Below, one piece after another: positions 5,812-61,387 of a stretch of DNA of 64,000 nucleotides. The notes under the pieces were generated by a model. The model was given only the letters and a program-made list of their open reading frames with translations, was not told the DNA's origin and did no database searches. The position numbers and the translations under genes were made by a program. Position 1 is the stretch's first letter; each line of letters begins with the position of its first letter. Origin of the DNA: Macrolepiota albuminosa (lineage: Eukaryota > Basidiomycota > Agaricomycetes > Agaricales > Agaricaceae); NCBI GenBank assembly GCA_027475525.1, contig JAMWFC010000117.1, positions 3,458,183-3,522,182 of the forward strand, in the 5' to 3' direction.

Positions 5812-7049
5812 ATGCCCATTTACCTGTCCTTGCTGCCAAAAGATACAGCGATCTCCTCTTCAAGTATTCTTCTTCCCACAAATCACCTGGTCTCTGCTTC
5901 TGTGACACATGCTCGCAACACGGGTCGCTCTCAAAACGCAGTGCATTCAATGACGAACCCTCAGGTTTCGAGCACGGGTGATGAATTGCGTGCAATATCA
6001 AGAAGGGCGATTGTGGATAGAGTTATTGCACACTCGTGGGCCCCGTCCACAGCTAAGAGATACTCATCAGCCATAGCGGATTTCGTCAAGTTTTGCAACC
6101 TTCACGACATCCCACGCAATTCCATTTGGCCGGCTTCAGATGATTTACTCTGCTTCTATGCAGCTTCGATGGCCGGAACGGTTGCGGGTAGCACCGTCTT
6201 AAATAAAATCTCTGGTTTGCGCTCCTTTCACATTCAGCACGGCATGCCTTGGGAAGACTCTATGAGACTTAGACATACTGTAAAGGGGGTTGAAAATCTC
6301 CGGCCAGAATCTTCCTTCCAAAAGGAGCGACCTCCCGTGACCTTGGAGATCCTGCAGGCCATTAAGGCGAACCTTGAGTTGTCTAATCCGCGTGATGCTT
6401 GTATCTGGGCGATGGCTACTACCGCATTCTGGGGCCAGATCCGTATGGGTGAATGTCTTCCCACGCGGGAACAAAACTTCGATCCAACCATTCTGCCGGC
6501 ATGGTGCAACTTCGGTACACCTAACGACACAGGTACTAGATCTTTGTTTCTACCGTGGACAAAAAAGGCTGGTAGGAAGGGCGAAACGGTGGTCATTACA
6601 TGTCAAGCCAATGGTTGTGATCCTATAGCGGCACTCACTAACCACACTCGTGTGAATAAGGTTACTTCGGATATGCCCATTTGCTGCTACTCCAACGGAA
6701 AAGGACACGTCGTTGCGCTGACCACGTGCAAATTACTCCTGGTTATCAACCCAATTTTGGAACGTCACTCTTTACCAACCGTCAGTGGGCACTGTCTTCG
6801 CATTGGAGGAACGACGGCCTTGCTGCTTAAATTTTGGAACGTCACTCTTTACCAACCGTCAGTGGGCACTGTCTTCGCATTGGAGGAACGACGGCCTTGC
6901 TGCTTAAAGGAGTACCGCCTGACGTTGTCAAGGCCATGGGTCGTTGGACTTCTGACGCCTTTCTACAATATTGGCGGAATTTGCAACTGATTGCTCCAAT
7001 CTATGTGGAACTGCTTCATCCTGTAATGTCGTATCTGGACAGACAATAG
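5812..7049 (+). pseudogene. tyrosine recombinase of the retrotransposon, frame broken by a 77-bp tandem duplication
   Basis: Tyrosine-recombinase family protein expected to integrate the circular element DNA. The N-terminal SAM-like core-binding region begins around HSWAPSTAKRYSSAIADF. The catalytic region shows the first Arg in WGQIRMGE, the H-x-x-R box in HCLRIGG, and the tyrosine nucleophile in SDAFLQYWR. The assembled sequence carries a 77-bp tandem duplication (6753-6908) across the H-x-x-R box. Since 77 is not a multiple of three, the second copy is out of frame and the Tyr is separated from the rest. Removing one copy leaves an uninterrupted 386-codon frame from ATG 5812 to the stop at 7049. 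The break is therefore probably an assembly artefact rather than decay. Confidence 0.85.
6753..6908. repeat. exact 77-bp tandem duplication 1
   Basis: Positions 6753-6831 are repeated at 6830-6908 without mismatch, a period of 77. It lies inside the recombinase ORF and shifts its frame. First of 15 such duplications in this window. Confidence 0.97.
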
Positions 7050-7452
7050 TCTTCGGCGGGGGATTCATCAACTGCGTCCTGAGCTACCTTCGTCTCCCGG
7101 GGTGGGGTCAGTTTTCCTTGCACTGACTTGTGGATGTATCCCAGTCCTTCTGCTTGAGTGTACTCCCCCTCGTTTCGACTCCTATTTCTAGGTGGAATAC
7201 CCTTCAAGCAGTGAGACTCTCGCCCATCGTAGGGACATCGTGTTCAGGAAGTTTAGAGCTTCGCCTTATACCTTATCCTAGTTTACCTCTGTAGTTTCTT
7301 ATCATTATTGCCATGCGCTCAGTTTTAGGCCACGCCCGGAACTAACGCGAAATAGCACCCTTCCAAATGGAGGCACGTCATGCAGGAGGGGTGTATTTTG
7401 ACGTGTGACCTTAGCGTGACCGCAAGTCGTTTGTCTCTCTCCCTCTAATTAG

Positions 7453-7549
7453 TCGTTCGAACAGAATTCTTGCCTTGCGGTTCATTCCGCGAGACGGTCT
7501 TTTATTTACTGCCTTCGTAGTTGCAGTTTTATTCGTATCGTACTGTACT
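7453..7549 (+). repeat. right 97-bp direct repeat of the retrotransposon (A2)
   Basis: Identical to 1553-1649. It follows about 400 bp of non-coding sequence after the recombinase stop. The non-element flank starts immediately downstream. Confidence 0.9.
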
Positions 7550-7888
7550 AGTTTTTATACCTATAAATTCTGGCGTACGTGGCTCACCAGTGTTGAACGA
7601 CAAGGCATTCACTTTCATTTATCTAGATAATCCAACGACTCTATAAAGGACCTCTAATGTAACCTATCGTAATCCATGGATTACGACTTTCACCGAATGC
7701 TATGGGTTACGACATATTTCCGCCTATCGCGTATCCTCTACAAAGAATCCACAATCAATCCCGAAAATCACGCACGGGACCGGGGCTGATCACCTGATTG
7801 ATTAAAATCCCACAATCTTTGCTACAAGTTTATCGCTCCACCTCTGCCTCCTTTGTGATCACTTTCGTATACTTACTTCCTCGGATCT

Positions 7889-10474
7889 ATGTCTTCTACC
7901 ACTAGCAACACTCTGAATCGGAAGTCGTCGCTTGGAACTAAAGAGAGAAGTGGCAAGCACCGTATGGGAGGCAATCGTGGCCGAGGCGGACGTCCAAGTG
8001 GCAAGACATCTGCAGCCGCGCCACTCTCAGACCTTGAAACAAAGGGGAAAGAACCAAAGAAATCTTCAGAAGAGGATATTGAGGCTAGTGAGGACACGGA
8101 CGTATGCTGGATCTGTGCAGAACCTGTCAAGTACTACTCCGTCTCGGAATGTAATCACCGCACCTGCCATGTCTGTGCACTACGTCTTAGAGCACTTTAC
8201 AAAAAACTAGATTGTACTTTTTGCAAGGTCGGATATCTACTTCTTTCGACAAGCTGATATCATATCGTGATATATAATTTCCAGGAACCTCAGCCAACCG
8301 TGATGTTTACCGCCTCCGCCAAAGAGCCTTTCTCATCGTATACTCCTGATTCAGTAATCTTCAAGGACATCAAGCTTTTGATTTCTTTTGAGACACAAGA
8401 AATGATGGAAGAAACGTTGTTACTCCTTCGATTCAACTGTCCTGACTCTGATTGTCCTTATATTGGGAGTGGGTGGGGCGATCTCAAACTACACGTACGA
8501 GCCACTCATGGAAAGCTCATGTGGTTAGTAGTATTCTTATCTATGTCTTGGGTAACTTTAAACGGGCTTTTGCGATAGTGATCTGTGTATAAGGTCAAAA
8601 AAGGTCTTCGCCCATGAACATGCTTTGTATCCACCTAACATTCTCCCTCTGCATCTTCCCTCAATGTATCACCGTCCATATGGAAAATCGATAGCAAAAG
8701 AACAAATTGATGGCGGGATTCACCCACTTTGTGAATTTTGCCGCGAATGTTTCTTCAGCGATGACGAATTGTACTCTCACATGAGGGAAAGGCACGAAGA
8801 ATGCTTCATCTGCAAGCGAAATGGTATCAGAGATCAATAGTGAGCAATACCTTTGACTGCCCGAAAATCTCGGCCTGACTTGTCGCTCAAGCTTTCAGAA
8901 CTATGAAAGCCTGGTAGGACATTTCCGCGCCTCACAACTCTTGGAGTATAGCTCAAGAATGTATAGGAAAATCATTTCCACACGGCACACCATCCGTGCA
9001 ATCAATCTCAATGCCTTGCACGAAAATTTGTCGTGTTTAATACTCCACTCGATCTTCAGGCGCACATGGTAGAAGAACATGGTAGCGATATGTCTTCGCG
9101 CGTAAAAAAGGATGCACGACGTGTACAAGCGGACTTCGAGTTCGAGGAAGTAGGACGTCGTGGACGCCGGGATCGCGGTAGTCATAGGGACCGCGAAACT
9201 GAGCCTCCACCGCATCATAGACAAGGACAGCAGGATCCAGGGCCCTCTTCGACGCCCACCGTCCTCAAGCCCCCGGGACCGGGACGCCGCAGGGAGGGTT
9301 TTGGTGCCAACTTGACTTCTGAAGGGGCGAGTAGTGGCACACCTAACCCAAGCCGCCCACCTTCTCCACCTCGTGGTGATTTAGATCCTGCGGTGTTAGA
9401 GTAAGTGTCCAAGAGCTGAGAATGAGAGGTTTGGTTTGACGGTGCCTCTACTCTTGTAGGAAACATGAAATGTTCGTTGGACGATTGCAATCCCTTGTGG
9501 CGAACCCAACGACTGCAGTTCCTGTGGCCAAGGCCGCTATTCGAGGCTACCGTGCCTCTGAATCCAGTGCCAAGGATCTCATATCAACAATATGGAACGT
9601 CCTTGATCAAAACTTGGAACATACTGCTAGTATAATCAACGCCTTCGTCGATCTTCTCGATCAAGAAGAAAAGAAACAAGATCTTTTAAGCTCTTGGAAG
9701 GGTTTTGAGATTGAGGTTAGTTGCTCGCTGCCAGACTCTTAATAAAGACAAGCTCATACAATGTATATTCCTCAGCAACGTCGTCAATTTCCTGATTTGT
9801 GTCCGACTGCAATCGCACCTTCAGGAACTGCTGGATACGCAGCGATCACTACTGGACGAGTCTTGAATGCTAAGCACGCTACTGCCACGCGCTCTGCTCA
9901 ACGTTCCTCTCGACAAGTCTGGGACCGTGTTGCCCAAGCTGCCAACGCAACCAAACCCGTTGATCGATTCCCTGTCCTGTCTTCGTCGACCGCCGTTCCC
10001 TCCGCTGCCCCTGCGCACCGACAAAATCAGCGTACAACAGCCTGGTCAGCAAACGGCAATAGCAATCCTAATTCGAGCTCTAGTTCACACCCAATGTTCA
10101 TGCCTACACCAGCTCAAGCGTCTTCGTCTCACATTACGGTCATTCCTGATCCTCGTTCGTCGAGACCACCATCAGGACGAAATACACCTCAGGCTCCACC
10201 GCCTAAGCTTTCAAATGCGTTGTTCCCAGAATTACCCTCTTCCGCTCCAGCAAGACCTAAAGCGCCTGTAAAGGGAAACGTCTCGCTGCAGAATATCCTT
10301 GGTAACCCGACGCCACCAGCGGTATCGGCTTGGGGTGGTGGGCTTAGTTCTTCCACTGCAGTCGGGGAAGGTGGGGGTGTTAGTCACAACGACGCACCAA
10401 GTAGTGGCAAAGGAAAGAAGGGGAAAGGAAAACAGAAACAGACATTGTTCACGTTGGGTTCATTCCCATCTTAG
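7889..10474 (+). CDS. HEL2: HEL2/ZNF598-type RING E3 ubiquitin ligase
   Basis: Ribosome-associated E3 ligase that senses collided ribosomes and ubiquitinates small-subunit proteins to start ribosome quality control (known for the family). Seven exons: 7889-8227, 8285-8523, 8579-8839, 8892-8913, 8967-9400, 9460-9715 and 9776-10474, giving 749 aa. An N-terminal RING is visible (CWICAEPVKYYSVSECNHRT, then CHVCALR and CTFCK). After it come C2H2/Cys-rich fingers (NCPDSDCPYIG with HVRATH; CDLC; CEFCRECFFSDDELYSHMR; CFICKR). A basic, Pro-rich middle and a Ser/Pro-rich tail ending in a Lys-rich run (GKGKKGKGKQKQ) complete it. Exon 4 is only 22 nt. The next gene is convergent. Confidence 0.93.
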
Positions 10475-12671: not shown

Positions 12672-12689
12672 CCTCGGTCGACTTCGTTC

Positions 12690-12942
12690 TTCGTTACTTC
12701 TATTTCGCTGTGTTACTATTTTGTCAAATTTACTATTGATGCTAATCCAGAAGGTTTGAACCTGGGTCCACTTCGTCTTTCATTGCTTCGATTGAAGCCT
12801 GTGTTACTATTTCGTGTGCTAATACAAAAGGGTTGCACCCGGGTCCACTTTACTTCGTCTTTCATTGCTTCTATTTCGAACCCTGTGCTACTATTTCGTC
12901 AAATTTACGATTGGATGATAATCCAGAAGGTTTGATCGTCGA
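12690..12942. repeat. degenerate tandem repeat, about three units of ~85 bp
   Basis: Three imperfect copies of a unit containing TCATTGCTTCTATTTCG, CTGTGTTACTATTTCGTCAA, AATCCAGAAGGTTTGA and GGGTCCACTT follow one another directly after the uS19m stop. The copies differ by substitutions and small indels, unlike the exact 77-bp duplications elsewhere, so these look like genuine old repeats. No function is evident. Confidence 0.75.
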
Positions 12943-14207: not shown

Positions 14208-16479
14208 ATGCTGTCCTACTGGCAAATCATTGTAATCACTGCAGCCTCCATTGTAGCTACTCTCCACTTCACAAGGCGCTTTACAAGGTTTCCTCTTCCT
14301 CCTGGTCCCAGAGGATTGCCCGTGGTTGGTAACCTCTTCGGATTGCCAAGTTCCTTCGAATGGATAGCTTACGCACACTGGGGACGATATTTCAGTGAGC
14401 CATAAAGTCGTTGAATAGTTTAGTTTCTCTCAATCCAAGTCCGTTACTCCAGACTCCAATATCATATGTTTCAGCACACTTGGACGGAGTATCGTCGTCG
14501 TCAATACATTAGAAGCCACAAATGAGCTTTTCGAAAACAGATCCGCAAACTACTCCAGCAGGTACCTACCCGCGCTCGACTATTGGATTCTCGTACATCT
14601 ACTGACAGAAATCATCCAAGACCGCGGTTCGTCATGCTGAACGAGCTGTAAGAAGCTTGAATATTCCCGTTTGTATACGCATACTTGAAGTCCATAGAAT
14701 GCAGTGGAATTGGCTGTTTACATTTATGCCCTACGGTGATGCTTGGAGAACTCGCAGACGATTATTTCATCGAGGTCATCGAAAAATTATGAGTTGTAAT
14801 TAATACCTCTGACGATGGATTTTTTCCCAGAATTCAATCCTACCATGATCGACAGATACCAACCACAGGAACTCAAATGCACACGACGTATGCTTCGACG
14901 TCTTCTAGATAAGCCGGATGATTTTGCAAAGCATTTACGAGAGTAAGACATAGTTTTCTCTTGACCCTAATCCTTCTAATTGATGCCTCTTCGACAAAGC
15001 CTCGCGGGGGCTATTATCATGTCCGTTGCATATGGTATTGATGTCCTGCCGGAGAATGATCCATACATCGCGGTTGCAGAAACTGCAATGCATGGAATGA
15101 GCGAGGCCACAATTCCAGGAACTTTCCTAGTTGATTTTATCCCTCTGCTTAAATATATACCTGAGTGGATGCCTGGTGCAGATTTCAAGAGGAAGGCCAA
15201 GATGTGGCGGGAGTTTACCGCACAAGTTGTTGAAAAACCATTTGCCGTTGTACAGCAGAGTTTGGTTCGTACCTCTTTCTCTCTTTTGTCCTATTCCTCA
15301 CCATGTACTTCAAGGCCAAGGGAGAAGCCTTGCAGCCTTCCTTTGTCTCGTATTGTCTGGGAAGTATGGAATCATCAGTAGAGGATACCCACACCCAACA
15401 ACGCATCGTACAAGAAACCGCAGCAGGTTTATATGAAGGTTATTCAATCCCCAACAGTAAACTCCGTTGATACTTCCTGATTTCATCCACAGGCGGTTCA
15501 GACACAACAGTGTCGGCTATGAACACCTTTATTCTAGCAATGGTCTGTCACCCAGAAGTACAAAAGAAAGCACAAGAGGAACTCGACCGTGTTCTGCCTC
15601 CTGGGCATCTACCTGATTTCGGCGACGAACAAGCACTCCCATATATTTCCGCCATTGTGAAAGAAGTCCTCAGGTACGTGCTAAAAAGTCGGGCAGAAGT
15701 ATAACAAGAAAACCAATTATTTGTCCTTCAGATGGCAACCTCCAGTCCCACTCGGTCAGTCTCGTTCCTGGAAGATCATTTTCTTAGAGTCTAAAGTGTG
15801 ACGTCGAGCAGCGGTCCCGCATTCTGCTACCGATAACGATGTTTATAACAATTACCTTATTCCTGCAGGTTCTACTGTCATCGGGAATGCGTGGTAAGAG
15901 GATGATGGTTTCACTATTCCAGTACTTCGACGTGTATTCTGACAACGTGATTCTGAAGGGCCATCCTTCATGACGAGTGCGTTGATACCATTTCAATGTG
16001 AGCTCCAACACGGCTCTTATCATTGTTAGGACAATGTATCCTGATCCTAACACCTTCAATCCGGATCGCTTCATGAAAGACGGAAAGCTCAACCCAGAAA
16101 TCCGCGACCCCAGCGTAGTATTCGGGTTTGGAAGACGGTGAGAACAAAACGAAGCGAAATCAATCTTCATCTTTTTAGTGATAGTTTTTGAAAGAATCTG
16201 TCCTGCTCGTCACATGGCCAATTCATCGATCTGGATTGCGGCAGCATCCATACTCAGGACGTTCACCCTGTCCAAGGCTATTGATGACAACGGTCGTACA
16301 ATAGAGCCCTCTCAGGAATATAACTCGGGTCTTATCTCGTGAGTAATCCGCCTTCCTTGCAAACTATCAATAACAGTGTATTGACAACTTCGAGTAGTCA
16401 TCCACTGCCTTTTAGATGTACTATTCGTCCGCGCTCCCCGGAAGCAGTGTCCCTCATTCACCTTGCCACCGAGTTATGA
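14208..16479 (+). CDS. cytochrome P450 monooxygenase (agaricomycete type)
   Basis: Membrane-anchored heme monooxygenase. Fourteen exons (14208-14394, 14453-14561, 14609-14647, 14698-14774, 14831-14942, 15000-15264, 15315-15426, 15493-15673, 15732-15754, 15812-15893, 15959-15976, 16030-16137, 16195-16338, 16398-16479) give 512 aa, full length for the class. Visible landmarks: an N-terminal hydrophobic anchor, the Pro-rich hinge PLPPGPRGLPVVGN, an I-helix AGGSDTT, a K-helix ExxR (KEVLR), a PERF-type NPDRF, and the heme loop FGFGRRICPA, where Ala replaces the usual final Gly. Exon 11 is only 18 nt. The type resembles proteins often labelled O-methylsterigmatocystin oxidoreductase; the substrate cannot be told. 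No biosynthetic cluster surrounds it. Confidence 0.93.
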
Positions 16480-16771
16480 CCAGACTTACGACCGATACTT
16501 TTTCCATATGATATGTAAACCTTACCAACGACCCAGAGAACATGTCACAAATTATGCCCCTCATATATCCATATCGTTTCCTCATTTGTGCGTTAGTTCC
16601 AAGATCATAGGTCATTGCTTGCTACGTGTATGTATACATCATTGAGCACTGAAAGCATATCAGTAAGCCCTTGACTAGCAAGTATCAAACAGTCCACAAG
16701 AATTCCTTCAATGCTTTCCTGAAGAGAGAGTGCGCACAACTGAAATGTCAAACCGCTCACTACGCCTACGC

Positions 16772-19430
16772 CTACCGAACCCTGCGATAGAACAGCAAAT
16801 ACGCAGCCTTGTTCTCATCCTCATACTGAGGCACGAACACATCCTCCAAACGGACATCAGAAACAAGCTCATCATCGATGCGCATCCATCCTTCGGCCGC
16901 ATTCCGCCCTGGATGTAGAACGTCCAACGTGTAATGTCCACCGGACGCAGACTGGCCGTGGTGGTACAGAGCTATGTAGTAAATTGAATTTCGTTAAAGC
17001 AGGAATCAACCCCAAGTAAATGAGAGCTACGTACCTCCAAACAGCTTATACTGGGCTGCTGGTCCCCGCCGCAGTGCCGGCGCCATAACTTCGTCGCCGA
17101 CCTCCAACTCCCCACCCCACTGCACAGCCTTCCCAACTTTGACAACGCCACCTACATCTTTATCATAGAAGAACCGCTTGAATGCAACAACCAGCACAGG
17201 CGGAAGCGCTTCCAACAAATGCTGGATCGACGCTTGACGCGCGGAATCAAGTTCAAGAAGCTGCGGCGCAGCCATATGCGCGAGAGCGTCTTGAACAGTA
17301 TGTATTGAGTCTGTTTGTATGTCGAGACGAAGTGCTCGCCACGCTTCGATTGTTGTTGAGTCTTTTTGGCCAAGTGATTTGAGCATTGAGCGGACTTTAC
17401 CGCCGAATATGCGGGTGATGGGTGTTTCGACTGCTTTTATCTACATCCAGGTAATGAGCATCCGCGTACATGGGGTAAGAGAAAGGGGGGGAAAAGGGAA
17501 CGTACTGTGCGTGTAATAACCGTCCTATTCCGCTTCCCAACCTCCAACCAACCTTCCTCCTTCTCCTCCTCTACCTCTCTCTCCTCCACACCACTATCTG
17601 CCTTCTTCGCTTTCACTTTCGCCTTCTTCGCAGGTGGCGGTGACCCCGAAAGCGCCTGGACAACAGCAACCAATTCCTCCTCCAACGCATCGAGGAAAAA
17701 CCCAAGGAACTCCTCCGCGTCTTCTTGCTGTCCACTACGCATTCCATCAAATACCGTCTTCTCCTTCATCGCGTCGTAGACATAGCTAGGCAAAAATGCT
17801 GCCTCGCCATCGTCATCTATCTCGCCACCACTCTCGTCGCGTTCTTTCCCCTTTCCTTTTCCATTCATAGGGCCACTGACCTTCGCACCACGCTCCGCTT
17901 TCCTTGGAGCCGGTGAAAACTCGCGTATGAACTCGACCATGGCGTCAACAAGCGGCGTTGGTCCCTTGACCTCCTTCTCGCCGCCTGCACGGAACCCAAA
18001 TCCGTACCGCCCAAGCTCGGTGAACAGGCGATGGAACGGTGGGCAGAAGAGAAGGACCTGCAGGACGGAGTTTGCAAAGCACATATTGCCGGAGTTGATT
18101 AGACCACGGGGACGAATGACGGGGACACTGCCGATTTCCGGTACAGACATAAGGAGGGCTAGAAGCTCCTGACGTTTTGTGTGTGGGAGAGAGAGAACAG
18201 GATGGGCAAATGATGTTTGTTGTTGGAGATTCGAGCTTGAGTTCGCAGGTATTGACAAAAATTGTTGAGGAGTTGAAGCGGGAACGGAGATACCGACGAC
18301 GTTGGAAGTAGGAAGACGCTTATGGCCGGGGGCAGGAGGAACTGAAGAGCTAGGTTGAAAGAGAGAAGCCCATGATTGTTTTGGAGCAGATTGTACAGGA
18401 GTGGGTGTGGGTACAGGTTCTGGTGGCGGTAAAGACGAAGAAGGTACTACAGTGGCAGGGCAGGTCATTGGAATGGAAACAGTCTTGGATGCATTATAAT
18501 CCGGAGAAACTGAAAGTGATGTAACAGAAGTGGCGGGAGAGGCAGCCGCTGGTGTGTCCAGGTCTGTCACGCTGGATGATGGAACAGTAGAGGACGGCGC
18601 AGCTTCGGATCCGCCTATAGGCGATTCATAAGTGTGTTCGTGTTCAGGTTCAGGTTCAAAATCAGGTTGAGGTTCAATGTGTAGCGGAGGGTATGATGAG
18701 TCTGGTTCAAGCTCTTCTATCAACAGAACTGGAGTCATTGGTGGAGTGGGTAGTTCCAAAGCGTGTTGTACAACATAAGGTGGTGGCATAGCACCTGGGG
18801 AAATAATGATTCCGGGAGCCTGAGATGGATCCTGCGGCCTTCGAGACCACACTGCCCATTCTATGACCGGATTTTGAACTTTAGGTTGAGGTGGTGGTGA
18901 AGGAGGTGAAGGGGGAGGAGGAGAATGGACTGGCTGTGGCTGCGGTGGCGGTGGTGCAGGTGCAGGTGGCGGATGAGCGGGAGTAGGAGCAGGAGAATGA
19001 GATGCAGATGAGTGGTGTGAATTTGGAACTTTCTGGTGATGCATAGAATAAGGATCCGGTGGCGGCATGAAAAGCTGTTTTGGAAGCGGCGAAAGCGGTG
19101 TCATTCCATTTGGATATACATAACCATGCGTTGGAAAGTGCGTTGCGAACGTCGTCGCCGTCGACGACGACGGGTCGGGATACATGGCCTGAATGTTTTT
19201 TGTCAGTTTTTTATGAAGCATTCAATAGTGAACTATGATAGTACTTACGGTATAGCTTTTCCAATCAGCTGTAATCGCTGATTTTCCAGTTTTTTTTTGG
19301 GTTGTATGTGGTTCCAATCGATGGCAACGGGCACAGCGGAAACTTTTTGTTGAGCTATCGTCAGCAATTGCTTCAACCGCCAAATATGCACAAACACAAA
19401 ACCGGCATCAATTGTCCTTAGATCTGTTGT
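16772..19430 (-). CDS. UBP3: ubiquitin carboxyl-terminal hydrolase, UBP3/USP10 type
   Basis: Cysteine-type deubiquitinase. Exons supported on the minus strand: about 19430-19249, 19188-17506, 17440-17035 and 16971-16772. The N-terminal ~350 residues are low-complexity (Pro, Ser, Thr). The catalytic Cys box is RPRGLINSGNMCFANSVLQV. A QQEDAEEFL motif follows at the usual spacing, and the His box reads YHHGQSASGGHYTLDVLH, with the protein ending YLLFYRRVR. An acidic, Lys-rich insert separates the Cys box from the rest. Upstream of 19188 an open exon continues in phase to about 19430 with no clear initiator ATG, so the start is unresolved and a further 5' exon is likely. It is convergent with the P450 (292 bp between stops). 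UBP3 acts with Bre5 in vesicle traffic and ribophagy in yeast. Confidence 0.9.
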
Positions 19431-20608
19431 GGAAAGCTAACAATTCCGAATGAGATGTATTATCAGACTCTCTTTGGTAGACTGAAACGCTTCGGGGATC
19501 TGGGGCTATCACGCTGAAACCAGACTCAACGTCCAAAGAATCAAGTGACCCTTACGTGGATCCAAGTCCTCTTCTATCTTGATTAAAAGATTGACATACT
19601 ACAGCATTCACAGGACAAGTACGTATCATGTTACATGTAGCTGTGTGTACGCTCATCTGCGCAAAAGGGATTCTTAGCATAAACAGTGAACATAGAACGT
19701 CTCCACCTGTGTTCTGTCCGTCCCGATCATGTAGTCCTGAAGCTCGTGTGGATTCAGCGCAGGGCAGCCAGCGTTAAGCACGTCAAGAATAGCATGTCTC
19801 GATATTGATTGGCCCCGTGACTCAGCCTATCAATGAGAAAATTCCAGAAATGAATTTTGGAATCCCATATATTCAATAGTTCGCACTCCAGATATGTTTC
19901 AGCGTATTCTGCAGGAATTGGGTCCCAGTGATCGACTTCTTTGATGCTCTTGAAACCGGATAGCTACTGTGGGTACATCTGGTTGAATTCACTAGTACTG
20001 TCATTCTCTCGGCGGTGCATTCCAGAATGTCGTGCCGCGATTATACTTCTCGCACTTGCCGTCTGTCCATCATGGAGCTCTACGCCAGGGTGCGATACTG
20101 TTCAATTTTTATTAATTGTCCCCATCATTATGTGCATTATCACTATCTCGAAGAATGAGAACCGAAAAGAACCTTAATTTCCACTCACCTGCACATGATA
20201 TGGTGTAATTCTTGACGAGACCAACTTTATAAACCCGAAAATGGGTCTCTGGAATCCACGCTCTCAAACACATGACATTCTTACCTTTTCTTTTTCTTGC
20301 GGCTATCGCTTCACATCTGATGATAGGATCCAAGAAGAATCTACCTCGGTTTCGCATGTTCTCAGCCAATAGCCGCGCAGGACATCGCGTGGTTGACCTA
20401 TACATCCACACCAATAGGTGTTATATTTGTGAATCAATACATATGGAACCAATCTGTATTGCGCGTCTTCTTCGGGGGATTTAGAAGGACAGTTAATATA
20501 CTCTCGGTCGACTGCAAGATCAAGTCTCATCCTGAGTCTACTTCCGCCACTTATTTCAGGCATATAAAAGGCCCCATTGACACGACATCGATAGCAAGTC
20601 CACTCCCA
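19431..20608. other. intergenic region between divergent genes
   Basis: Probably holds the 5' end of the deubiquitinase gene and the promoter of the S28 peptidase gene. A TATA-like box (ATATAAAAG) lies about 40 bp upstream of the peptidase ATG. No other gene is recognised. Confidence 0.55.
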
Positions 20609-22967
20609 ATGCTCTTCTCTCTTTCTCTGGGCACGCTCGTGCTGGCGCAGCTCGTAGGCGCCGTGCTCCCCGATGGGCGGATGCACGGTAACATGATAAG
20701 CCGACCTTTCATCCCGAAAGTGGCCTTCGAGAAATCCAGCGTTCCTGTCACGAGTCGCAATGGGACGGTACTTCCTCCCTATGACACGACGTACGAATTT
20801 GACCAACTCATCGATCACAACAATCCCTCACTCGGGACGTTCAAACAACGCTTCTGGCACACCTATGAATTTTACGAACCCGGTGCGCCTTGTGATCTTC
20901 ATACAGTGCGACTGAAAATCTAACCTTGGCAAAATTGTAGGCGGGCCAATCATCCTTATGACACCTGGAGAAACCAACGCAGATGGTATCCTCTCTCCAC
21001 CTCTTTGCTTTCTTTTCGCTGCTCACTTCGACAACTTCAAGGCTACTTCACCTACCTAACTAACAGCACCATCAACGGACTAATCGCGCAACAGCAAAAC
21101 GCCAGCGTGGTCGTAATGGAACACCGATTCTACGGCCTCAGTAATCCCCGCCCGGATTTGACAGTAGAGAGTCTGAAATTACACACCCTGCAACAGGCGA
21201 TTGATGATTTAGTCTATTTTGCTGAAAATGTGAACTTGCCGATGCCTGGAGGTGATAACCTAGGACCGGATGTGGCACCATGGATCTTGACTGGGGGAAG
21301 TTACTCAGGTATCCATCGACCTAATTCTGATAAGAAGATGCATATTGACGTGTTGTAGGTGCTCTCACGAGCTGGACAATGGTCAAGTGTGTCTTTCTTT
21401 GCGGAAATTCGTACATGGTGTTCATTTGTGATTCATAGCAAACCTGGTGTCTTCTGGGCAGGTTACTCCTCTTCCGGTGTAGTCGAAGCTATCCTGTCAG
21501 TTTCCCAGCTATCGTTCAGCTTTTCCCTCGCTGAGTTCGTTCATGGTGTTACAGGGACTTCTGGGAATATTTCGAGCCGGTCCGTCTCAACATGCCACAG
21601 AACTGCTCCGCTGATATCCAGGCGGTGATCGCACACATCGACGAAGTTTTCACTGGGACTAACGAGACAGCTATTCAAGCCATCAAAGACAACTTCGGTC
21701 TAGGTGCAATGACACATCTGGATGATGTCGCCGGTGCTCGTAAGTTTGCCATGATTAGAGAAGTCATAATGATGCCTGATGCTCGTTAGTGCGCAACAAC
21801 TTATGGGACTGGCAATCCCTGCAAGTTTACTCAGGACCTGGGACACGGTTCTACCAGTCCTGCGATGCGTTGGAAGTCAAGAACGGCGAGGTTGCGCCTG
21901 AGTCTGGTTGGGGCTTGGATCACGCTCTGGATGCTTGGGGTACTTATTGGAGGGAAACGTATTATCAGCAAAGTGAGTATACACCTCCTGCTTGCCTTTC
22001 ATAATTTGATCCCGTTCCTTAACAACAACTCTCAGTTTGTGGTAGTCTGGATGCTGTGTGAGTCATCATAATGTGCCTGTAACATACAAATGAGTTGATT
22101 TGTCCTCCATCTAGTGACTGCTTGGGGACGTATGACGGGACTCAAGCTTATTACACCGATACGGAGGTCGATAATGCAAATAGGTCCTGGTTCTGGATTG
22201 TGTAAGCACCCTTTTACGTGACAGATATTGTCTCAAACACCTAACTCGTGAACAGGTGCAATGAAGTTGGATATCTTCAGGCTCGTCCTGTTTCTGCGTA
22301 CTAAAATAATTGATAATTCATCGATTATCTTCTAATAGGAAGGCGCACCTGAAGGACACCCCACGCTCGTAACACGTATCGTCCAACCTCCCTATGACTT
22401 GGTGAGCCGTCATCGATCGTCCCAGTGTTGTAGATATTAACAAGTTCCAATTCCAGCGTCAATGCAAGATGATGTTCCCCGGTGCCTTCCCGGAAGAAGT
22501 CAATGTACAGGTCAATCGCACCAACGAACTCTACGAAGGCTGGGACGTCAGAATCGAACGTCTCTTCTTCGCCACTGGAACGCGTATGATTATTTCTAAA
22601 GCACAATGGCTGGCATATCTTTAATTAAAAACGCATCTTCTCTACAGGTGATCCATGGAAGGATGCCACAGTATCTGCAACAGACGCCAACGTGCCGAGC
22701 ACAGCCTTGCAGCCCATTGGACTAGGCGACGGGTTCCATTGCTCGGACTTGCTCACTAGGTCTGGACAGCTTGACGCCACTGTACTCAAGGTTCAAACAG
22801 ACGCCCTCGCTTCTATGAAGACGTGGCTTGCGTCTTGGGAGCCAAAAAGCAAGGGCAAAGCAACGTCTGCCAAGAAGAGTGTCCCCGTTTCCGACAACCA
22901 GACGCCTAGAGCACACCCTGTCAAACCTATCAACGCTTTCAACAGGGGAATAGGTTCTGCACAATAG
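20609..22967 (+). CDS. secreted serine peptidase, family S28 (prolyl Xaa carboxypeptidase-like)
   Basis: Alpha/beta-hydrolase peptidase of the S28 family (lysosomal Pro-X carboxypeptidase/DPP7 relatives), which cleaves next to proline. The start MLFSLSLGTLVLAQLVGAV is a signal peptide, so the protein is secreted or vacuolar. About a dozen exons can be followed; the first is 20609-20882 and the second 20941-20985. Landmarks: QRFWHTYEFYEPGGPI, VVVMEHRFYG, the nucleophile elbow GGSYSGA (split by an intron after SG), FWAGYSSSGVVEA, an Asp in DPWKDAT, and the His in GDGFHCSDL. All three catalytic residues are present and no stop interrupts the chain. Several Asn-x-Ser/Thr sites fit secretion. The tail is Lys-rich. 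A role in protein degradation outside the cell is inferred. Confidence 0.9.
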
Positions 22968-25900
22968 GCGTGGTTTTGCGATCCGTTTGAGTGACAATTG
23001 AAAGTAAACAGTGTCCGTATACATATAAAGATGAACGGTAGATACTATGATATGTTTACCATGTACATCTAAGACAAAGATCACTATCCTTCCGATGCAA
23101 CGTAGCACATAACGGACGTGTTGTGAATTCTAAAAAATATCAGAAGAATCTGCAGCAAGCTCCGAGAGTCCTAGCGCTTAAAGATCGAGTTTGGAGAAGA
23201 ATACATTGGTGTGAATGGGATTTCAATTTTCAGTATCCATGGACCTAGTAGTTTCGTTGCTAGCTTTGCAATCCAAGTGGTACGAAGTCGCCTCACAAAG
23301 CTCAAGATTTCCATCCAGAAAGATTCTCGAACAGATCGAACAGATTCTGCAGCTGCTGCTCAGCTCCTTCAGAACAAGGATTAGATCCATGAGTCATCGA
23401 AACGTTAAAACGTCCTTGGCTCTTGGTTAATACCGTCGACTGCCCGCTTGCTTTACAGTGGCTATTTTCGTAGAGTTGTAAGTTAACGTGCAATGACAAG
23501 GAAAATTTCCTTTGATAGGAGTTTTAAGTCGAGACTTTTATCTGAGTATTGGGTGGCTTTCTGCGACCAGAGAGTCACCGTTGACTTACATCCCGACTGC
23601 ACTTCTTCATGATAAGCCTGATTTGGGCAATAATCAAGTTGTGAAACTGCGCTCAAGTAAATTTGGCGATCCATTGATTCCTTTCCCTTTCAACTTGCGG
23701 CAGAAGTCTCCGACGGAATATCTTCAGTGAATTTCACAGAGATGGTCAAACCTACCATTAATTCATCTAATATCACCTTAAGTTGATAAGTTCAGAGAGA
23801 ACCATGGTCTGATATGAGGATTCTTCGAGACATTGGACCATGGCGTCAAGGCCACCTTGATATTTTCCTGCCATGAATCGATCCTGCCGGGCATTAGATG
23901 AAGCAGGTCTGAAACCCTAGGAAGAGCATACCTGAGGCTTGCTCTTAGAAGATGGCAATGCATTATAAAATTTGCCACATATACTGCTGAAATTATCGAG
24001 TCAATCCTCATTTACCTCGATATTGATATACATGTTGCTATCAAAGGCGCACTACATCACCAATAGGCAAGATGAGAAATGACCATTCTCCACATCGATA
24101 AAAGCCGCCATAGCAAGTTCTACTCATTTTGTATTCTCATGAGCAGAAAACTAGATTTTAAGTTCTAAGACAAGTAAAACTTCGTTCGCAAGGCAGTCAG
24201 AAGATCGCACGAACACAAATAAAAGAACTTACTGTTTCCATGTCGACAAAGAGACCAAAACGCTTCACGAAATTGCGCCTAAAAAGGTGAAAGAGTTATT
24301 TATATCAATGAAACCTCTTCCAATTGTGACTTGTGCGATATTTCTATTATTACAATCTTGTTAGATAATAAGAATATACTCATTGTGACCACCATAGTGA
24401 CTGAGGTGAGGGTGCGAAACTTGTACCATTCAGTGAGTGAACACATACGAATAAGGAAAGCAAGCTGTTGCCATAAGCTATCGAGTCCGAAATCGCAAGA
24501 AGTTTCAGACATTAGCTTGAGATTGGCACGAAGAATGGCCATCCTGAGACTAAACCTCCAGCCCGGTTCATTGAGAAGATAGCAAGCGAACACTTTATAC
24601 ATCCGATATGGAGAGACCGTAAACGAAGATCCCGTAAGCAACCACCAGTCAAAAAAAATACCCGGTTATCATGCCGTGAGTTACCGACTAACAAGATTAC
24701 GACTTTGCGTAATCACCCGTTGAAACACCGGGCATCTATTATTAATCCGCTTCGAGCAATTTGTAGAGACGAATCGAGCAAGATACAAGTTGTGCTCATT
24801 GGTGACGGTTTCCTAGACTGATCGTTTTGACCGCTATTATGTGATAGCAACGTGCCTTTCGGTATTAAGATGAAGAAACAGGAGACACCAGTTGAACCGT
24901 CTTACCCCTAAGTGAATCCTCGGAATGCGCCTAAGGCATACGTGAGAGATGTCTTCCGGGATAGATGTCCTTGCGGCAGGTGTTCATAAGCGCTATAGAT
25001 ATTAAGACCCCGTTATCGGCGTGGGCTAAGTCTACTAGATATGGAAAGTGAGCAAGATATGACGAAGCTTCGTGAACTATTGATGCGGATTGGTATGAGA
25101 ACGGGGGGCAGAAAATGTCACATATGCTGCGGATTATGGAGAGCCGTGCCGTTGAACCGGAGTACCTTCACATGTTGAGCAACCTTAAGCGCTAAAGTAC
25201 TTGTTCAGATATCTTCAAAAGTCAGAAGTCGCCTATTGCTTCCCGCAAGATATCCTGGTGGAGCTCATGTCGTACCAGTCGTGATCAAGAAAATCAGAAA
25301 GAACAGATGTTTTGTAGAAGCGACGTGCTTCATAACCAGAAAAGTTAGCTTGAAGTGCAATCGTGATTGGTTAGATAACGTGTGGGGGAAAAGCGAAGTT
25401 AGCGCTGGTATTTGAACTCCGTGAGTGGCTCATCAGCAAAAGTCTATATTTTTCCACGTGATTGTTTTAAACATTCAGGTGTCCGATAGTCGAGGCATTC
25501 CAGCAGGGTTGCTGACTAGGCGCCGCATATCTCCACAAGACTCTGTCGAGACACTTGAGGACTAGCTGAAATTGCAGCATGTGAGTTTATCAAATGACAA
25601 GTACACGACTTTACCAGACCTCCGTTGAGTCCGCTTGAACTGGTTCATCCTGATGAAGGTCTGTCGGCAGTGTTTCTCTTCCGATGTCCTTCCTTTCTGT
25701 TATTGGTAGATTGGTGGATTCTCCCCAGGCGCTTAGTCTATGTCGAAGTTCCCTTGCCAAGTTTTTTCGGATTCGTTCGGCGACTTTCTTCCTGCGCTAG
25801 GGTGTGGGTTCAGAGAACTTCGCAATTGCCGTGGAGCGCCCGGCTTGGCTTCAGCTTCGTCGTCGTCTTCTTTGATTCGTGTCCTCCAGCCGAGGAAAGA

Positions 25901-36211: not shown

Positions 36212-37248
36212 CTATAGCATCGCAAGGCGGCTCTTCATCCGGCGCTGTGCGCGAAACAGGCCGAATCGTATGCGGAGGGACACGGCCTGCCACTGTCTGC
36301 GGAGGGCCTGGGCACACGTCGGGGTCCACGGCTGCTCGCGCTCGGGTTCCTGGGAGGGTGTGTAGTCTGGCGGGGGGGAGGTTGAGCGCTGGTGCTCGCG
36401 CTCGAGGGAGAGACGGGGACGGGAGGAGTGAATGGGTGTGGCAGAGTGGTACGAGAAGCGCGAGAGGGTGTGGGAGAGGGGGTGGCAGTGGGACGGGGCG
36501 TGGAGGGACGCAGTGTCTGGCTCGGGCTCTTCTGAGACAACGGTGGCCGTGGTGGTGGTGGGCGTGTCTGGGGTGAGGAGGGTGGAGGTGTAGTATGGGG
36601 AGGAGCTGGAAGGAGATGCGCCGTCTAGGGAACGGCGCTTGCGAGAGAACTCGCGCTTTGTGCGTGAGATGATGCGTGAGACGCCGCTTGGACGCGGAGA
36701 GTCTTCGTCGTTGGCGTCGAGGACTGAGTCCTGGGAGTCGAACGAGTCCGGGACGACGATGGTGGGGACGTAGGAGTACGAGTAGACGGGGCGTCTTGGT
36801 TGGTAAGACGAGAAGGAGGTGCGACGGGGATTGAAGTGGTCGTCTTCGGGCTCGGCGGCGTCGTCGTCGTCAAAGGACTCCCAGCGCGGGCGCGTGGAGA
36901 CGGTGATGTTGGAGGCGCGGCGGCGTGGCTGGGCGACGGGGAAGTGGCGGTAGTCTGGGTCGTGGAGCTCGCCGTGGCGGTCGACATAGGCAGAGTTTGG
37001 GGCAAATGCAGCACGGGGAAGTGGCGGTAGTCTGGGTCGTGGAGCTCGCCGTGGCGGTCGACATAGGCAGAGTTTGGGGCAAATGCAGCGAGGAGTAGGC
37101 GGGGTCGAGGAGGCGGGAGATGTCCTGGGCCTTGGAGGCCGGGGAGTGGCGGGCAAAGAAGATGGGAGACGTGGAACGCTGGAGCATGTCTGCGTGCTTC
37201 GTCTTGGCTTTCTTTCCTTCTTATATCTGTCCACCCATCCGTCTCCAT
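36212..37248 (-). CDS. low-complexity protein, unknown function, frame disturbed by a 77-bp duplication
   Basis: A minus-strand reading frame rich in Ser, Pro, Arg and Asp/Glu. Its core contains AYVDRHGELHDPDYRHFP, RWESFDDDDAAEPEDDHFNP and IISRTKREFSRKRRSLDG, and it ends RRMKSRLAML at the stop at 36212. The balanced acidic and basic content marks this frame as the real one over its Pro/Ser-only shadows. A 77-bp duplication (36936-37089) repeats the codons for AYVDRHGELHDP and shifts the frame. With one copy removed a single frame runs from ATG 37248. However, the most natural N-terminus (MLQRSTSPIFFARHSPASKA, ATG near 37187) is in another frame, so sequence may also be missing at the junction. 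The family is not named; cytoplasmic location is a guess. Confidence 0.6.
36936..37089. repeat. exact 77-bp tandem duplication 2
   Basis: 36936-37012 is repeated without mismatch at 37013-37089. It falls inside the coding frame of the low-complexity gene. Confidence 0.97.
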
Positions 37249-39776: not shown

Positions 39777-39932
39777 AAGGAAGAAAAGATAAGATGAAGG
39801 ACGTTTTTGGGGGTTTCGCCGGCATTCATAAGTCCCGGAGAAAAACACTAAAAAAGGAAGAAAAGATAAGATGAAGGACGTTTTTGGGGGTTTCGCCGGC
39901 ATTCATAAGTCCCGGAGAAAAACACTAAAAAA
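39777..39932. repeat. exact 77-bp tandem duplication 3
   Basis: Positions 39777-39855 match 39854-39932 exactly, period 77. Non-coding. Confidence 0.97.
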
Positions 39933-40220: not shown

Positions 40221-40375
40221 CGCGCGTCAAAAGTGAAGTTGAGGCTAGCGCTTTCTGATTAGCGTATACGTACGTACGCAACGATCTAGCCGTGGGTCGC
40301 GCGTCAAAAGTGAAGTTGAGGCTAGCGCTTTCTGATTAGCGTATACGTACGTACGCAACGATCTAGCCGTGGGTC
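40221..40375. repeat. exact 77-bp tandem duplication 4
   Basis: Positions 40221-40298 match 40298-40375 exactly, period 77. Non-coding. Confidence 0.97.
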
Positions 40376-40501: not shown

Positions 40502-40656
40502 AAAGAAGTTGGAGGGCAGAGGGTGTGCGTCGTCGGTTCACCGGGGACACAATAAGTGATAGTGATGTATGCGTGGCTAAAGAAGTTGGAGGGCAGAGGG
40601 TGTGCGTCGTCGGTTCACCGGGGACACAATAAGTGATAGTGATGTATGCGTGGCTA
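40502..40656. repeat. exact 77-bp tandem duplication 5
   Basis: Positions 40502-40579 match 40579-40656 exactly, period 77. Non-coding. Confidence 0.97.
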
Positions 40657-41066: not shown

Positions 41067-41222
41067 TGGCTGAGTACGCGTGGGTTTTATGCCGATGTGT
41101 GATGAGTAATCCCAGGGAATCGGGTGTCCTTTCTGCGAGTAAGTGGCTGAGTACGCGTGGGTTTTATGCCGATGTGTGATGAGTAATCCCAGGGAATCGG
41201 GTGTCCTTTCTGCGAGTAAGTG
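41067..41222. repeat. exact 77-bp tandem duplication 6
   Basis: Positions 41067-41145 match 41144-41222 exactly, period 77. Non-coding. Confidence 0.97.
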
Positions 41223-42365: not shown

Positions 42366-42522
42366 AGAACATGTGTTAATAAGGATACCGAACTGGTTTC
42401 CTTGATATACTTGGAATCGCCGCACGGGAACAGACGGTGGAAAGAACATGTGTTAATAAGGATACCGAACTGGTTTCCTTGATATACTTGGAATCGCCGC
42501 ACGGGAACAGACGGTGGAAAGA
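42366..42522. repeat. exact 77-bp tandem duplication 7
   Basis: Positions 42366-42445 match 42443-42522 exactly, period 77. It inflates a chance 201-codon minus-strand open frame. Confidence 0.97.
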
Positions 42523-43716: not shown

Positions 43717-43871
43717 GAAGCCTATTACGCCAAATTAACGCATCCCGGTTCGTGCCCGAGCAAGTATTGACTTTTACGAATCGGCAATGTCTCGAAGCCT
43801 ATTACGCCAAATTAACGCATCCCGGTTCGTGCCCGAGCAAGTATTGACTTTTACGAATCGGCAATGTCTCG
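43717..43871. repeat. exact 77-bp tandem duplication 8
   Basis: Positions 43717-43794 match 43794-43871 exactly, period 77. Non-coding. Confidence 0.97.
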
Positions 43872-44733: not shown

Positions 44734-44887
44734 TTTCCGAATCGATTCAGTACCATTAATTCAAGTGGCGTGTGTCAAACTGTATTCAGACATCTTTAAA
44801 AGTGCAGTCATTTCCGAATCGATTCAGTACCATTAATTCAAGTGGCGTGTGTCAAACTGTATTCAGACATCTTTAAAAGTGCAGTCA
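44734..44887. repeat. exact 77-bp tandem duplication 9
   Basis: Positions 44734-44810 match 44811-44887 exactly, period 77. Non-coding. Confidence 0.97.
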
Positions 44888-46064: not shown

Positions 46065-46218
46065 TTATCTCCATATCTCAAGCATCTGAACCGAATAATC
46101 AATACTTTGTTCTACATACGATTTCTTGTTCGTTCTTTGGCTTATCTCCATATCTCAAGCATCTGAACCGAATAATCAATACTTTGTTCTACATACGATT
46201 TCTTGTTCGTTCTTTGGC
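46065..46218. repeat. exact 77-bp tandem duplication 10
   Basis: Positions 46065-46141 match 46142-46218 exactly, period 77. It lies just downstream of the minus-strand gene that ends at 46355. Confidence 0.97.
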
Positions 46219-47749: not shown

Positions 47750-47903
47750 CGCAATCAAGAGCTCCATCCAAAGGACAAGTTGTAAAATGATGCACCTTTG
47801 CCAGTACCAACCTAGGAATCGATCAACGCAATCAAGAGCTCCATCCAAAGGACAAGTTGTAAAATGATGCACCTTTGCCAGTACCAACCTAGGAATCGAT
47901 CAA
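47750..47903. repeat. exact 77-bp tandem duplication 11
   Basis: Positions 47750-47826 match 47827-47903 exactly, period 77. It lies in the intergenic region upstream of NAA20. Confidence 0.97.
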
Positions 47904-56083: not shown

Positions 56084-56180
56084 AGCCCACCGCGAGGGTC
56101 GAACTCGCAGCCTTCAGATAATGAAAGAGATACAAGTCTCCTTAAAAGTCTGACGCTCTGGCCGATTGAGCTAGGCGGGC
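56084..56180 (-). tRNA. trnK-TTT: tRNA-Lys (anticodon TTT), with a 23-nt intron
   Basis: On the minus strand the acceptor stem GCCCGCC/GGTGGGC, D-arm and T-arm match the plus-strand tRNA-Lys at 55500 almost exactly. The anticodon loop is CTTTTA-A, giving TTT. A 23-nt intron follows position 37. The mature length is 74 nt. The two genes face each other across about 0.5 kb and so form an inverted repeat. Confidence 0.93.
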
Positions 56181-57546: not shown

Positions 57547-57700
57547 AAACTCCAAATATCACGGAGGTGTGAGTTAAATTTGAGATGTGGCGATACAGTC
57601 CGTCCCGATCAGCCGAATATATAAAACTCCAAATATCACGGAGGTGTGAGTTAAATTTGAGATGTGGCGATACAGTCCGTCCCGATCAGCCGAATATATA
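57547..57700. repeat. exact 77-bp tandem duplication 12
   Basis: Positions 57547-57623 match 57624-57700 exactly, period 77. The second copy runs into an AT dinucleotide run. Confidence 0.97.
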
Positions 57701-58457: not shown

Positions 58458-58611
58458 CAGAAGAAATGAAAATAGGAAAGCTCCACACAAATTGAACTTG
58501 GTATGCATCGGTAGGAAAGGTGTAATGTTGCGGGCAGAAGAAATGAAAATAGGAAAGCTCCACACAAATTGAACTTGGTATGCATCGGTAGGAAAGGTGT
58601 AATGTTGCGGG
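58458..58611. repeat. exact 77-bp tandem duplication 13
   Basis: Positions 58458-58534 match 58535-58611 exactly, period 77. Non-coding. Confidence 0.97.
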
Positions 58612-58663
58612 TCCTGAAGCCAAGGGCGTGGGGAAGCCGGACATTTATCATGATGTTCCTTAA

Positions 58664-58993: not shown

Positions 58994-59686
58994 TTCACAT
59001 TCCTTGTGTGATCCATTCCTACCGTCGTCTCGTAATCTTCTAGATAACGTATTTGCTGCACTGAACTCGACGAATCAATCGAACAAAGGAGACGGACTAA
59101 GAAGTCCACGACTACACCATAACAGGGAAAATGTGGATGCTCTTGAAACCCAGCTTCCCAGATTGTCGTCCGACATTGAATGTGGGGCGTTATCCAGTGC
59201 AACCCACTTTAACTCGTACGATCTCCCAAGAAAAATATTGAAATCAAATGATCATGAACCAGAGCCATGATCGGGTCCGGCAAAAAATCATACATCCGCA
59301 GCCGGAATTCGGACGACTGGCTCAGTGGGTGCGATCGAGGGATTTTGCCCTACACAACATAAGGCTCATCTGGATGGGATAGCAAAGCTTCCGACTTCAT
59401 ATATAATCGCGTCTAGTGCGGGAAGTATCAGAGTGGCGACACCGGCGGGAATTCTAACACGTCCTATTATATCAATTGCTGAACCACCTGACCCCCACTT
59501 GGCTTATAGAGTCACTGAAGTGCCGGTTGTAATCGTTATACATGTGACACCGATGACGAGTCAAGGGTTCAATGCAACGGTAGCTACAGACGATCGTGTT
59601 CATAATTTCGATCTACGCGGGAATTCCTGGAATTCCTGGAACGCCGTTCGATTCATTCGTCCTTCGTTACCACTGTTGACTCCACT

Positions 59687-59840
59687 GGAGGTCCAGAATT
59701 ACCGGTGGCGGCATGTTTGTGGATGACGTGGTGTGACAACAGCGCCTCGTTGCAAGTCACCTAGGAGGTCCAGAATTACCGGTGGCGGCATGTTTGTGGA
59801 TGACGTGGTGTGACAACAGCGCCTCGTTGCAAGTCACCTA
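59687..59840. repeat. exact 77-bp tandem duplication 14
   Basis: Positions 59687-59763 match 59764-59840 exactly, period 77. Non-coding. Confidence 0.97.
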
Positions 59841-60296
59841 ACCGACGTGGCATTCATTTATCGCCCAATACGTGTCAACCTGTATCCACTTTGTTGAAAT
59901 TGGACGCCAACTCTCTGCATCACTCGGAATGATTTCACTTGAAACTTGTATCAGATTGAGCTTTTTAAAACTACGTATGTGAATTTTTTCAACTAATATG
60001 CTAGTATAGGTAAGAGTAGATGCGATGAATGGGATGATGCAAGTGCTGTTGGTGACAGTGATGATGTTGATGTGAAGTACAAAAAAGCAAATAAGATAAC
60101 CAGAGCCTTGAGTTATAACAGATGAAACGCGATGAGAAAAGAGACGCCAAGGACAAGAAGATGGATGGGAGTCGTTGATGCTGAGAACATAGGATAATTA
60201 TACTAGATGAAGATGTCCTCCCATTGTATATTCTAAGAGGGACCTCGTGGAAATCAGGATGATGATCGTCTTGGCCGAGATGGGCATCAGAAGACC

Positions 60297-61387
60297 TTAT
60301 GCTTGTAAGTGTATAGGCCGTTGTACATGCGCTGCCTGTGATGATGAGAATCGACCGTGGCTATGAGTCTGTTGTCCAGGTAGGGGAATGACAGGGAATG
60401 ATCTGAGGAGATCCAGCGTCGTAGAGGAGTACTGGAGCTGTGCTGCCTTGTCTGTAGGGGGGTGATCCGGCGATGAAGCCAACATTGACGGGGTGCGCGG
60501 CGAATCAGATCCTGGTGATGATGAAGACTCAGGGCTTGAAGGATCCAACTCGGGAACGGTTTGTACTTGTCGCGGATGTGACCGGCGAGTATGAGGATGA
60601 ACGAAGCCAGACAACAAACGGCGAGAGCGAGATGAGACAGCGATGGCGGAGAGACCATCGTGGTGTGCAAGGAGATCATCCTCTGTAATACCAAGTTGAA
60701 AATCGAGGACGTCGAGGAACTCGCGTTCAATGCGACCGACATCTCTCTTGCCGAAAACTCCAGTACAGAGTGCCCAATGAACATTCTTCAGAGTAGAATC
60801 GTTTAGATACTGAGTATCGAGTGAGCTGTGAAGATACATAATTAAAGGGAACAATGAACATTCTTCAGAGTAGAATCGTTTAGATACTGAGTATCGAGTG
60901 AGCTGTGAAGATACATAATTAAAGGGAAATAGACACACCTTTGACGCGACAATCAGAGCGCCAAGAAAGACTCTCTCGAGTGCCCACTCTTCCAGCGCGA
61001 TGTGTAGATGTGGCTTGGCACGGTCAATATATACAAGTGTGGCGAGAAGTGTTGCGGTGGAGACTTCAGCACGAGTTATGACGTTGTTGACGAAAGCTTT
61101 GAATTTGGCATGCTCTGGGCGATGAGACAATGGACGTCCACGGGTTGAGAAGGGGCGACCCATTGCAAAGTCTACTGTGTCAACTACGCAATCTACCACA
61201 TATTCTGATAGCAAAAATGAGCAAGATTGAACAAAAAATGTGAAGACTTGGACTAACCGACAATACCACGAGTGATCTTGAGGTCGATGAGCTCTAGGAG
61301 GGCAGGAGAGTGGCGAGAGGGGTCTACAAGACTGGCGTGGTGGACAGGAGACGAGGAGGAGGAGGACGAGTGCGGGGACAGGAGCAT
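60297..61387 (-). CDS. cyclin of the Pho80/Pcl (cyclin Y-like) type
   Basis: Cyclin-box protein expected to activate a Pho85/Cdk5-like kinase. Exons: 61387-61258, 61204-60939 and 60809-60297, giving 302 aa. The N-terminus is MLLSPHSSSSSSPVHHASL. The cyclin box includes KFKAFVNNVITRAEVSTATL, LVYIDRAKPHL, FLGALIVASK joined to YLNDSTLKNVHWALCTGVFG, and IEREFLDVLDFQLGITEDDL. The rest is a Ser/Pro-rich tail ending HLQA. As assembled, the second intron is 129 nt and contains part of a 77-bp duplication; with one copy removed it is 52 nt, the size of its neighbours. Reading through gives an open but false insertion of about 43 residues in the middle of the box. Confidence 0.88.
60775..60928. repeat. 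exact 77-bp tandem duplication 15
   Basis: Positions 60775-60851 match 60852-60928 exactly, period 77. It spans the end of cyclin intron 2 and the start of exon 3, so the splice acceptor appears twice. Confidence 0.97.

What the first reader, a model, noticed from the sequence alone, without database searches (positions are those of the whole stretch)
6753..60928. Fifteen unrelated tandem duplications, all with a period of exactly 77 bp
Perfect two-copy tandem repeats occur at 6753, 36936, 39777, 40221, 40502, 41067, 42366, 43717, 44734, 46065, 47750, 57547, 58458, 59687 and 60775. The repeated sequences share nothing with each other, yet each pair is offset by exactly 77 bp with no mismatch; matches are 77 to 80 bp long. 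No known biological process makes single tandem duplications of one fixed length in unrelated sequence. 77 is a common k-mer size in de Bruijn assembly, so the likely cause is contigs joined end to end without collapsing their shared 77-base overlap. Thirteen of the 15 lie in 39.7-61 kb.
Basis: partly seen in the sequence, partly recalled or inferred. Interest (0 to 1): 0.92.

Follow-up and report, generated by a model that had tools for sequence, protein, structure and literature searches.

The report
Genome-assembly seams: uncollapsed 77-base overlaps
The exact 77-base "tandem duplications" are almost certainly not biology but seams in a mushroom genome assembly, where neighbouring pieces that share a 77-base end were glued together without removing the shared piece; this matters only because it breaks gene models.

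Summary
Observation confirmed: all 15 listed perfect two-copy repeats of period 77 are at the stated places. Interpretation supported. In 264 kb including the window, 39 of 40 exact tandem repeats of period 20-500 have period 77; in 75 kb from 15 other contigs, 18 of 18 do. The 57 repeated 77-mers are distinct. For the 54 of 57 runs that reach 77, the excess over 77 follows chance. Homologous proteins have one copy: at 36936 the same residues are read twice in two frames; at 60775 intron end plus exon is repeated. Eight junctions whose 77-mer also lies elsewhere in the genome were tested: single-copy loci exist for all 8, and at 8 of 8 one such locus diverges exactly at the base abutting the 77-mer (about 1.5 expected), as a branching vertex of a k=77 de Bruijn graph predicts. 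Only one of the 8 lies in the window. The 100-Mb genome (best protein hits: Termitomyces) would carry roughly 15,000-24,000 seams by extrapolation. Not a biological feature. No reads were available, the software is unknown, and for 14 of 15 window sites no full second copy of the 77-mer was found.

The parts
6753..6908 (.). junction 1 (run 79), inside a repeated element; copies at C62 and C110:4650820 run through with one copy of the stretch
36936..37089 (.). junction 2 (run 77), inside a coding gene on the minus strand; frameshift, same residues encoded twice in two frames
39777..39932 (.). junction 3 (run 79)
40221..40375 (.). junction 4 (run 78)
40502..40656 (.). junction 5 (run 78)
41067..41222 (.). 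junction 6 (run 79)
42366..42522 (.). junction 7 (run 80)
43717..43871 (.). junction 8 (run 78)
44734..44887 (.). junction 9 (run 77)
46065..46218 (.). junction 10 (run 77)
47750..47903 (.). junction 11 (run 77)
57547..57700 (.). junction 12 (run 77)
58458..58611 (.). junction 13 (run 77)
59687..59840 (.). junction 14 (run 77)
60775..60928 (.). junction 15 (run 77), in a PHO85-type cyclin gene on the minus strand; repeats 42 nt of a 52-nt GT..AG intron plus 35 nt of the next exon

Best explanation
The repeats are assembly seams. Sequence pieces (edges or contigs) of a de Bruijn graph were placed end to end in order. Neighbouring pieces share a 77-base vertex: the first ends with the 77-mer X and the second begins with X. 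The overlap was not trimmed, so the assembly reads ...X X... although the chromosome has one X. Shown here: exact fixed period, chance-like excess, spread over many contigs, single copies in homologs and same-genome repeats, and divergence exactly at the edge of X at the tested sites. Inferred: that the overlap length is the k of the assembler (77 is a usual top k of SPAdes, recalled), and that pieces were ordered from graph adjacency or long reads and written without trimming.
For: Period 77 only: 15 sites in the window, 39 of 40 exact tandem repeats of period 20-500 in 264 kb including the window, 18 of 18 in 75 kb of 15 other contigs, found on 9 of the 15. Run length minus 77, for the 54 of 57 runs that reach 77, is 0/1/2/3 in 34/13/5/2 cases against 30.3/15.2/5.7/1.9 expected by chance extension. 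All 57 X are distinct on both strands; 3 of the pairs among them, none within the window, share a 15-mer. At 36936 the same homolog residues align twice in two frames in 5 of 5 homologs compared (alignments printed for P0121 and P0122). In 5 of 5 cyclin homologs compared, one reading frame runs across 60775; for P0001 it holds 43 extra residues = 129 nt = 77 + a 52-nt GT..AG intron. Two other copies of the element at 6753 run straight through. At 8 of 8 tested junctions at least one same-genome copy of X diverges at the base abutting X in an allowed phase; the sliding-window control expects 1.48, product of the per-site fractions 9e-10. A toy k=77 graph with naive joining gives period-77 runs with the same excess pattern.
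Against: For 14 of the 15 window X no other full copy was found in the genome (13 with no match elsewhere, one with a partial 63-base match at 87%), so what made those vertices branch is not shown; alleles of a second nucleus or discarded pieces are guesses. None of the 38 junction spacings in 264 kb equals 155, the value for an isolated SNP bubble. Four junctions in the sample are not clean: runs of 76, 76, 70 (with one mismatch) and 59 (with one indel; not among the 57). Three 100-N runs in the neighbourhood show no shared flank, so not every join is of this kind. For one tested junction (L022:4834) 5 of 6 single-copy loci do not diverge at the edge. The control windows overlap and are few at some sites (5 to 121), so the product is not a strict probability. 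The toy also gave 2 repeats of other periods and longer runs from short pieces. No reads were examined.
Confidence: 0.985

Rival explanations
1. Real 77-bp tandem duplications made by a fixed-length process in the living fungus (for example a staggered double cut 77 bases apart that is filled in at both ends).
For: The length is fixed and nearly all copies are perfect, as a recent enzymatic process would give.
Against: No common sequence among 57 distinct 77-mers; single copies in homologs and same-genome repeats; X ends exactly where another copy diverges at 8 of 8 tested sites, which a cutting process does not predict; a coding frame broken.
Confidence: 0.005
2. Ordinary minisatellites or short tandem duplications.
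For: Ordinary tandem repeats do occur here, e.g. an imperfect one at 12740-12899.
Against: Ordinary repeats vary in period and carry mismatches; here one exact period in unrelated sequence.
Confidence: 0.003
3. A sub-variant of the best explanation (its confidence is a share within it): the same seams, but made by gap filling or polishing that closed a scaffold gap between two overlapping contigs to zero length, rather than by naive printing of graph paths.
For: Runs of exactly 100 N remain in the assembly; a gap filler closing such gaps could leave abutting overlaps (inference).
Against: The same junctions recur with both copies at several places (C30 and C94), which suits repeated traversal of the same graph edges as well or better.
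Confidence: 0.3

Closest known systems
k-base overlaps between neighbouring contigs of de Bruijn assemblies; position-k bias at contig ends (PMC5368935, 12 passages seen, not the whole paper)
   Same: The passages tie an excess of variant calls near contig ends to the k-mer length and to repeats that the assembler could not resolve; neighbouring contigs overlap.
   Different: The passages seen do not describe uncollapsed X X tandem copies inside scaffolds.
SPAdes K=77 assembly-graph edges (recalled, not from a call)
   Same: Adjacent edges share exactly K = 77 bases.
   Different: SPAdes itself normally trims the overlap when it writes a path (recalled); here it was not trimmed, so a later step is suspected.

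Membership tests
Uncollapsed de Bruijn overlap artefact | one fixed overlap length in unrelated sequence, on many contigs | tested here: met
   339 kb of 100 Mb sampled, seams on the window's contig and on 9 of 15 other contigs
Uncollapsed de Bruijn overlap artefact | match beyond the overlap only as long as chance allows | tested here: met
   34/13/5/2 observed, 30.3/15.2/5.7/1.9 expected, for the 54 of 57 runs of at least 77; 3 of 57 fall short (76, 76, 70)
Uncollapsed de Bruijn overlap artefact | the k-mer is a branching vertex: another copy diverges at the abutting base | tested here: met
   8 of 8 tested junctions; only one of them is in the window, since for 14 of 15 window X no other full copy was found
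Uncollapsed de Bruijn overlap artefact | single copy in reads of the same strain | not testable with these tools
   no reads available; homologs and same-genome repeats show single copies
Minisatellite / natural tandem duplication | variable period and mismatches between loci | tested here: not met
Target-site duplication of a mobile element | the two copies flank an insert | tested here: not met
   copies abut directly at all 15 window sites

The most novel reading that the evidence does not exclude
Some of the tandem copies exist in the fungus's DNA, made by an unknown process that copies exactly 77 bp irrespective of sequence.
Probability: 0.004. Interest if true: 0.95.

Novelty: not a real feature. 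Interest (0 to 1): 0.08.

Why it matters
As biology it does not. As data quality it does: if the sampled density holds, roughly 1.1-1.9 Mb of the 100-Mb assembly is false duplicate sequence (my extrapolation from 39 in 264 kb, and 18 in 75 kb). Because 77 is not a multiple of three, a seam inside an exon shifts the reading frame, as seen at 36936. Gene models, intron lengths, repeat surveys and variant calls from this assembly would be affected. A plain scan for abutting exact repeats of one length is a cheap check for any assembly.

Tried and rejected
A biological fixed-length duplication, natural minisatellites and target-site duplications were considered and rejected (see rivals and membership test). 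Simple heterozygous-SNP bubbles as the sole cause of the branches: none of 38 spacings in 264 kb is 155, so not supported as the main cause. Shared flanks across the three 100-N runs: none. Naming the exact assembly from the literature: in the listings (15 of 675, 10 of 3,393 and 12 of 1,605 papers shown) I recognised no paper as this 100-Mb assembly. Of the T. cryptogamus paper (PMC10021994) only passages were seen: SPAdes for an Illumina assembly of a homokaryon, and a later assembly of 64 contigs and 70 Mb from PacBio reads with CANU, so not this one. Papers on this kind of seam: (listings only: 15 of 896, 11 of 11, 5 of 6 shown) gave none whose title or abstract start describes it; the related PMC5368935 came and was seen in passages.

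Limits of the branch test. The 77-mers of 15 of 15 window sites and 28 of 42 other sites were searched in the genome; searches scored only 40 of 2,194 and 40 of 5,471 candidates, so copies are lower bounds. Seven of the 8 tested junctions were taken because a row at 100% over the whole 77-mer was listed elsewhere, the eighth (6753) with rows at 99% and 96%. Not every such row was fetched: for L022:4834 a row on C114 near 1546371 was left out. L022:3630, whose full 100% copy listed elsewhere (C30:10486) lies beside a second copy, and 77-mers with only 94-99% rows were not tested, though some of those rows may hold an exact copy. Two loci that carry the tandem themselves (L057, L058) were left out of the count. 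For 6753, L037 was included but matches X at 97%, so L036 decides. Locus L038 (C86, a partial match to the 36936 77-mer) was fetched and compared only with pieces of the 6753 site, without a match; it tells nothing.

Full report
Observation. An exhaustive scan of the window for exact tandem repeats of period 10-399 returns the 15 listed sites at period 77, with exact runs of 77-80 bases, and one unrelated short hit at period 14. Tandem Repeats Finder agrees. The finding's coordinates, period and clustering are right.

Where it is. The window is positions 3458183-3522182 of contig 110 in a genome of 100.1 Mb in 129 contigs. Among 9 reading frames scanned, Pfam finds ubiquitin hydrolase, DEP, IML1 and cyclin domains above cut-off in one frame each, a DEPDC5 C-terminal match below cut-off in another, and nothing in the other 4.

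Spread. In 264 kb (window plus 100 kb on each side) 39 of 40 exact tandem repeats of period 20-500 have period 77. In 15 stretches of 5 kb from 15 other contigs, 18 of 18 do, on 9 of the 15 contigs. Periods 70-76 and 78-84 show no exact run above 21 bases in the 264 kb. The 57 repeated 77-mers are all distinct on both strands; 3 pairs, none of them within the window, share a 15-mer or more. Three of the 57 fall short of a clean run of 77 (76, 76, and 70 with one mismatch), and one more with a single indel escaped the exact scan. Extrapolation gives about 15,000 seams (from 39 in 264 kb, a region not chosen at random) to 24,000 (from 18 in 75 kb) in the genome; this is rough because the seams cluster.

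Shape of the match. If two pieces overlap by exactly 77 bases, the repeat can look longer only by chance. Among the 54 of 57 runs that reach 77, the excess is 0, 1, 2, 3 in 34, 13, 5, 2 cases; chance predicts 30.3, 15.2, 5.7, 1.9. A toy genome cut at branching 77-mers and joined naively gives 1,643 period-77 runs with excess 0, 1, 2, 3 in 950, 407, 164, 70 cases, plus longer runs where pieces are short, and 2 repeats of other periods; its pieces are mostly shorter (1,233 of 1,680 under 155 bases) than those here.

Single copy in relatives. At 36936-37089 homolog residues align twice, in frames -2 and -1, in 5 of 5 homologs compared. For P0121, residues 3-46 align in frame -3, residues 47-72 in frame -2 over one copy, then residues 49 onward in frame -1 over the other: the same protein segment is written twice and the frame is lost. 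There is also a one-base frame discrepancy exactly at the outer edge of this 77-mer, where a graph variant could sit (inference). At 60775-60928 the cyclin homolog P0001 lacks 43 residues that the window reads through; 129 nt is 77 plus a 52-nt GT..AG stretch that has the form of an intron, and the repeated piece is 42 nt of its end plus 35 nt of exon. At 6753 two other copies of the same element in this genome run across without duplication.

Branching vertex test. In a de Bruijn graph a piece ends at a k-mer because that k-mer has two different neighbours. So another copy of X in the genome should diverge at the very base next to X. I fetched same-genome loci holding X for 8 junctions, one of them in the window. 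All 8 have a single-copy locus, and at 8 of 8 at least one such locus diverges exactly at the edge of X in an allowed phase. Other 77-base windows in the same loci meet this more rarely: 1.48 of 8 expected, product of the per-site fractions 9e-10. The weight is uneven: for 6753 and C110:3453321 the fraction was 0.60 and 0.55 (on 5 and 11 control windows), for the other six 0.02-0.18; the control windows overlap, so the product is a guide and not a strict probability. Not every other copy diverges there: for the junction L022:4834, 5 of 6 single-copy loci do not; the model needs only one. How the 8 were chosen and what was left out is told under Tried and rejected.

What remains open. For 14 of the 15 window 77-mers the search of the genome found no other full copy (13 with none, one with a partial match of 63 bases at 87%), so the second neighbour of those vertices is not seen; it may be an allele of the second nucleus or a discarded piece. 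None of the 38 spacings in 264 kb is 155 bases, as a lone SNP bubble would give. The software at fault is unknown; 77 as a standard largest k of SPAdes is recalled. Some seams recur, with both copies, at other places (C30, C94), which suits repeated use of the same graph edges. Three runs of exactly 100 N share no flank; they look like scaffold gaps, though the tool also shows withheld stretches as N.

Verdict. It is an assembly artefact, of little biological interest but of practical weight for anyone using this genome.

Noticed in passing
window 12740-12899: An imperfect tandem repeat that TRF also assigns period 77, with several mismatches and indels; it looks like an ordinary aged repeat and not a seam.
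   Followed up: partly
window 3441-6990: Two long frames resembling a retroelement with a tyrosine-recombinase-like end (resemblance recalled; Pfam gave no match); the part round 6753 has at least two other copies in the genome.
   Followed up: partly
G000:C30 and G000:C94: The same seams occur twice on each contig with both copies (about 13.1 kb apart on C30, 139.9 kb apart on C94), pointing to graph edges used more than once or to real segment repeats.
   Followed up: partly
G000:C110 near positions 3433987, 3567610, 3591889: Runs of exactly 100 N without shared flanks, so a second kind of join probably exists in the assembly.
   Followed up: partly
window 37089-37090: One-base reading-frame discrepancy against homologs exactly at the outer edge of the 77-mer, apart from the duplication itself.
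   Followed up: partly
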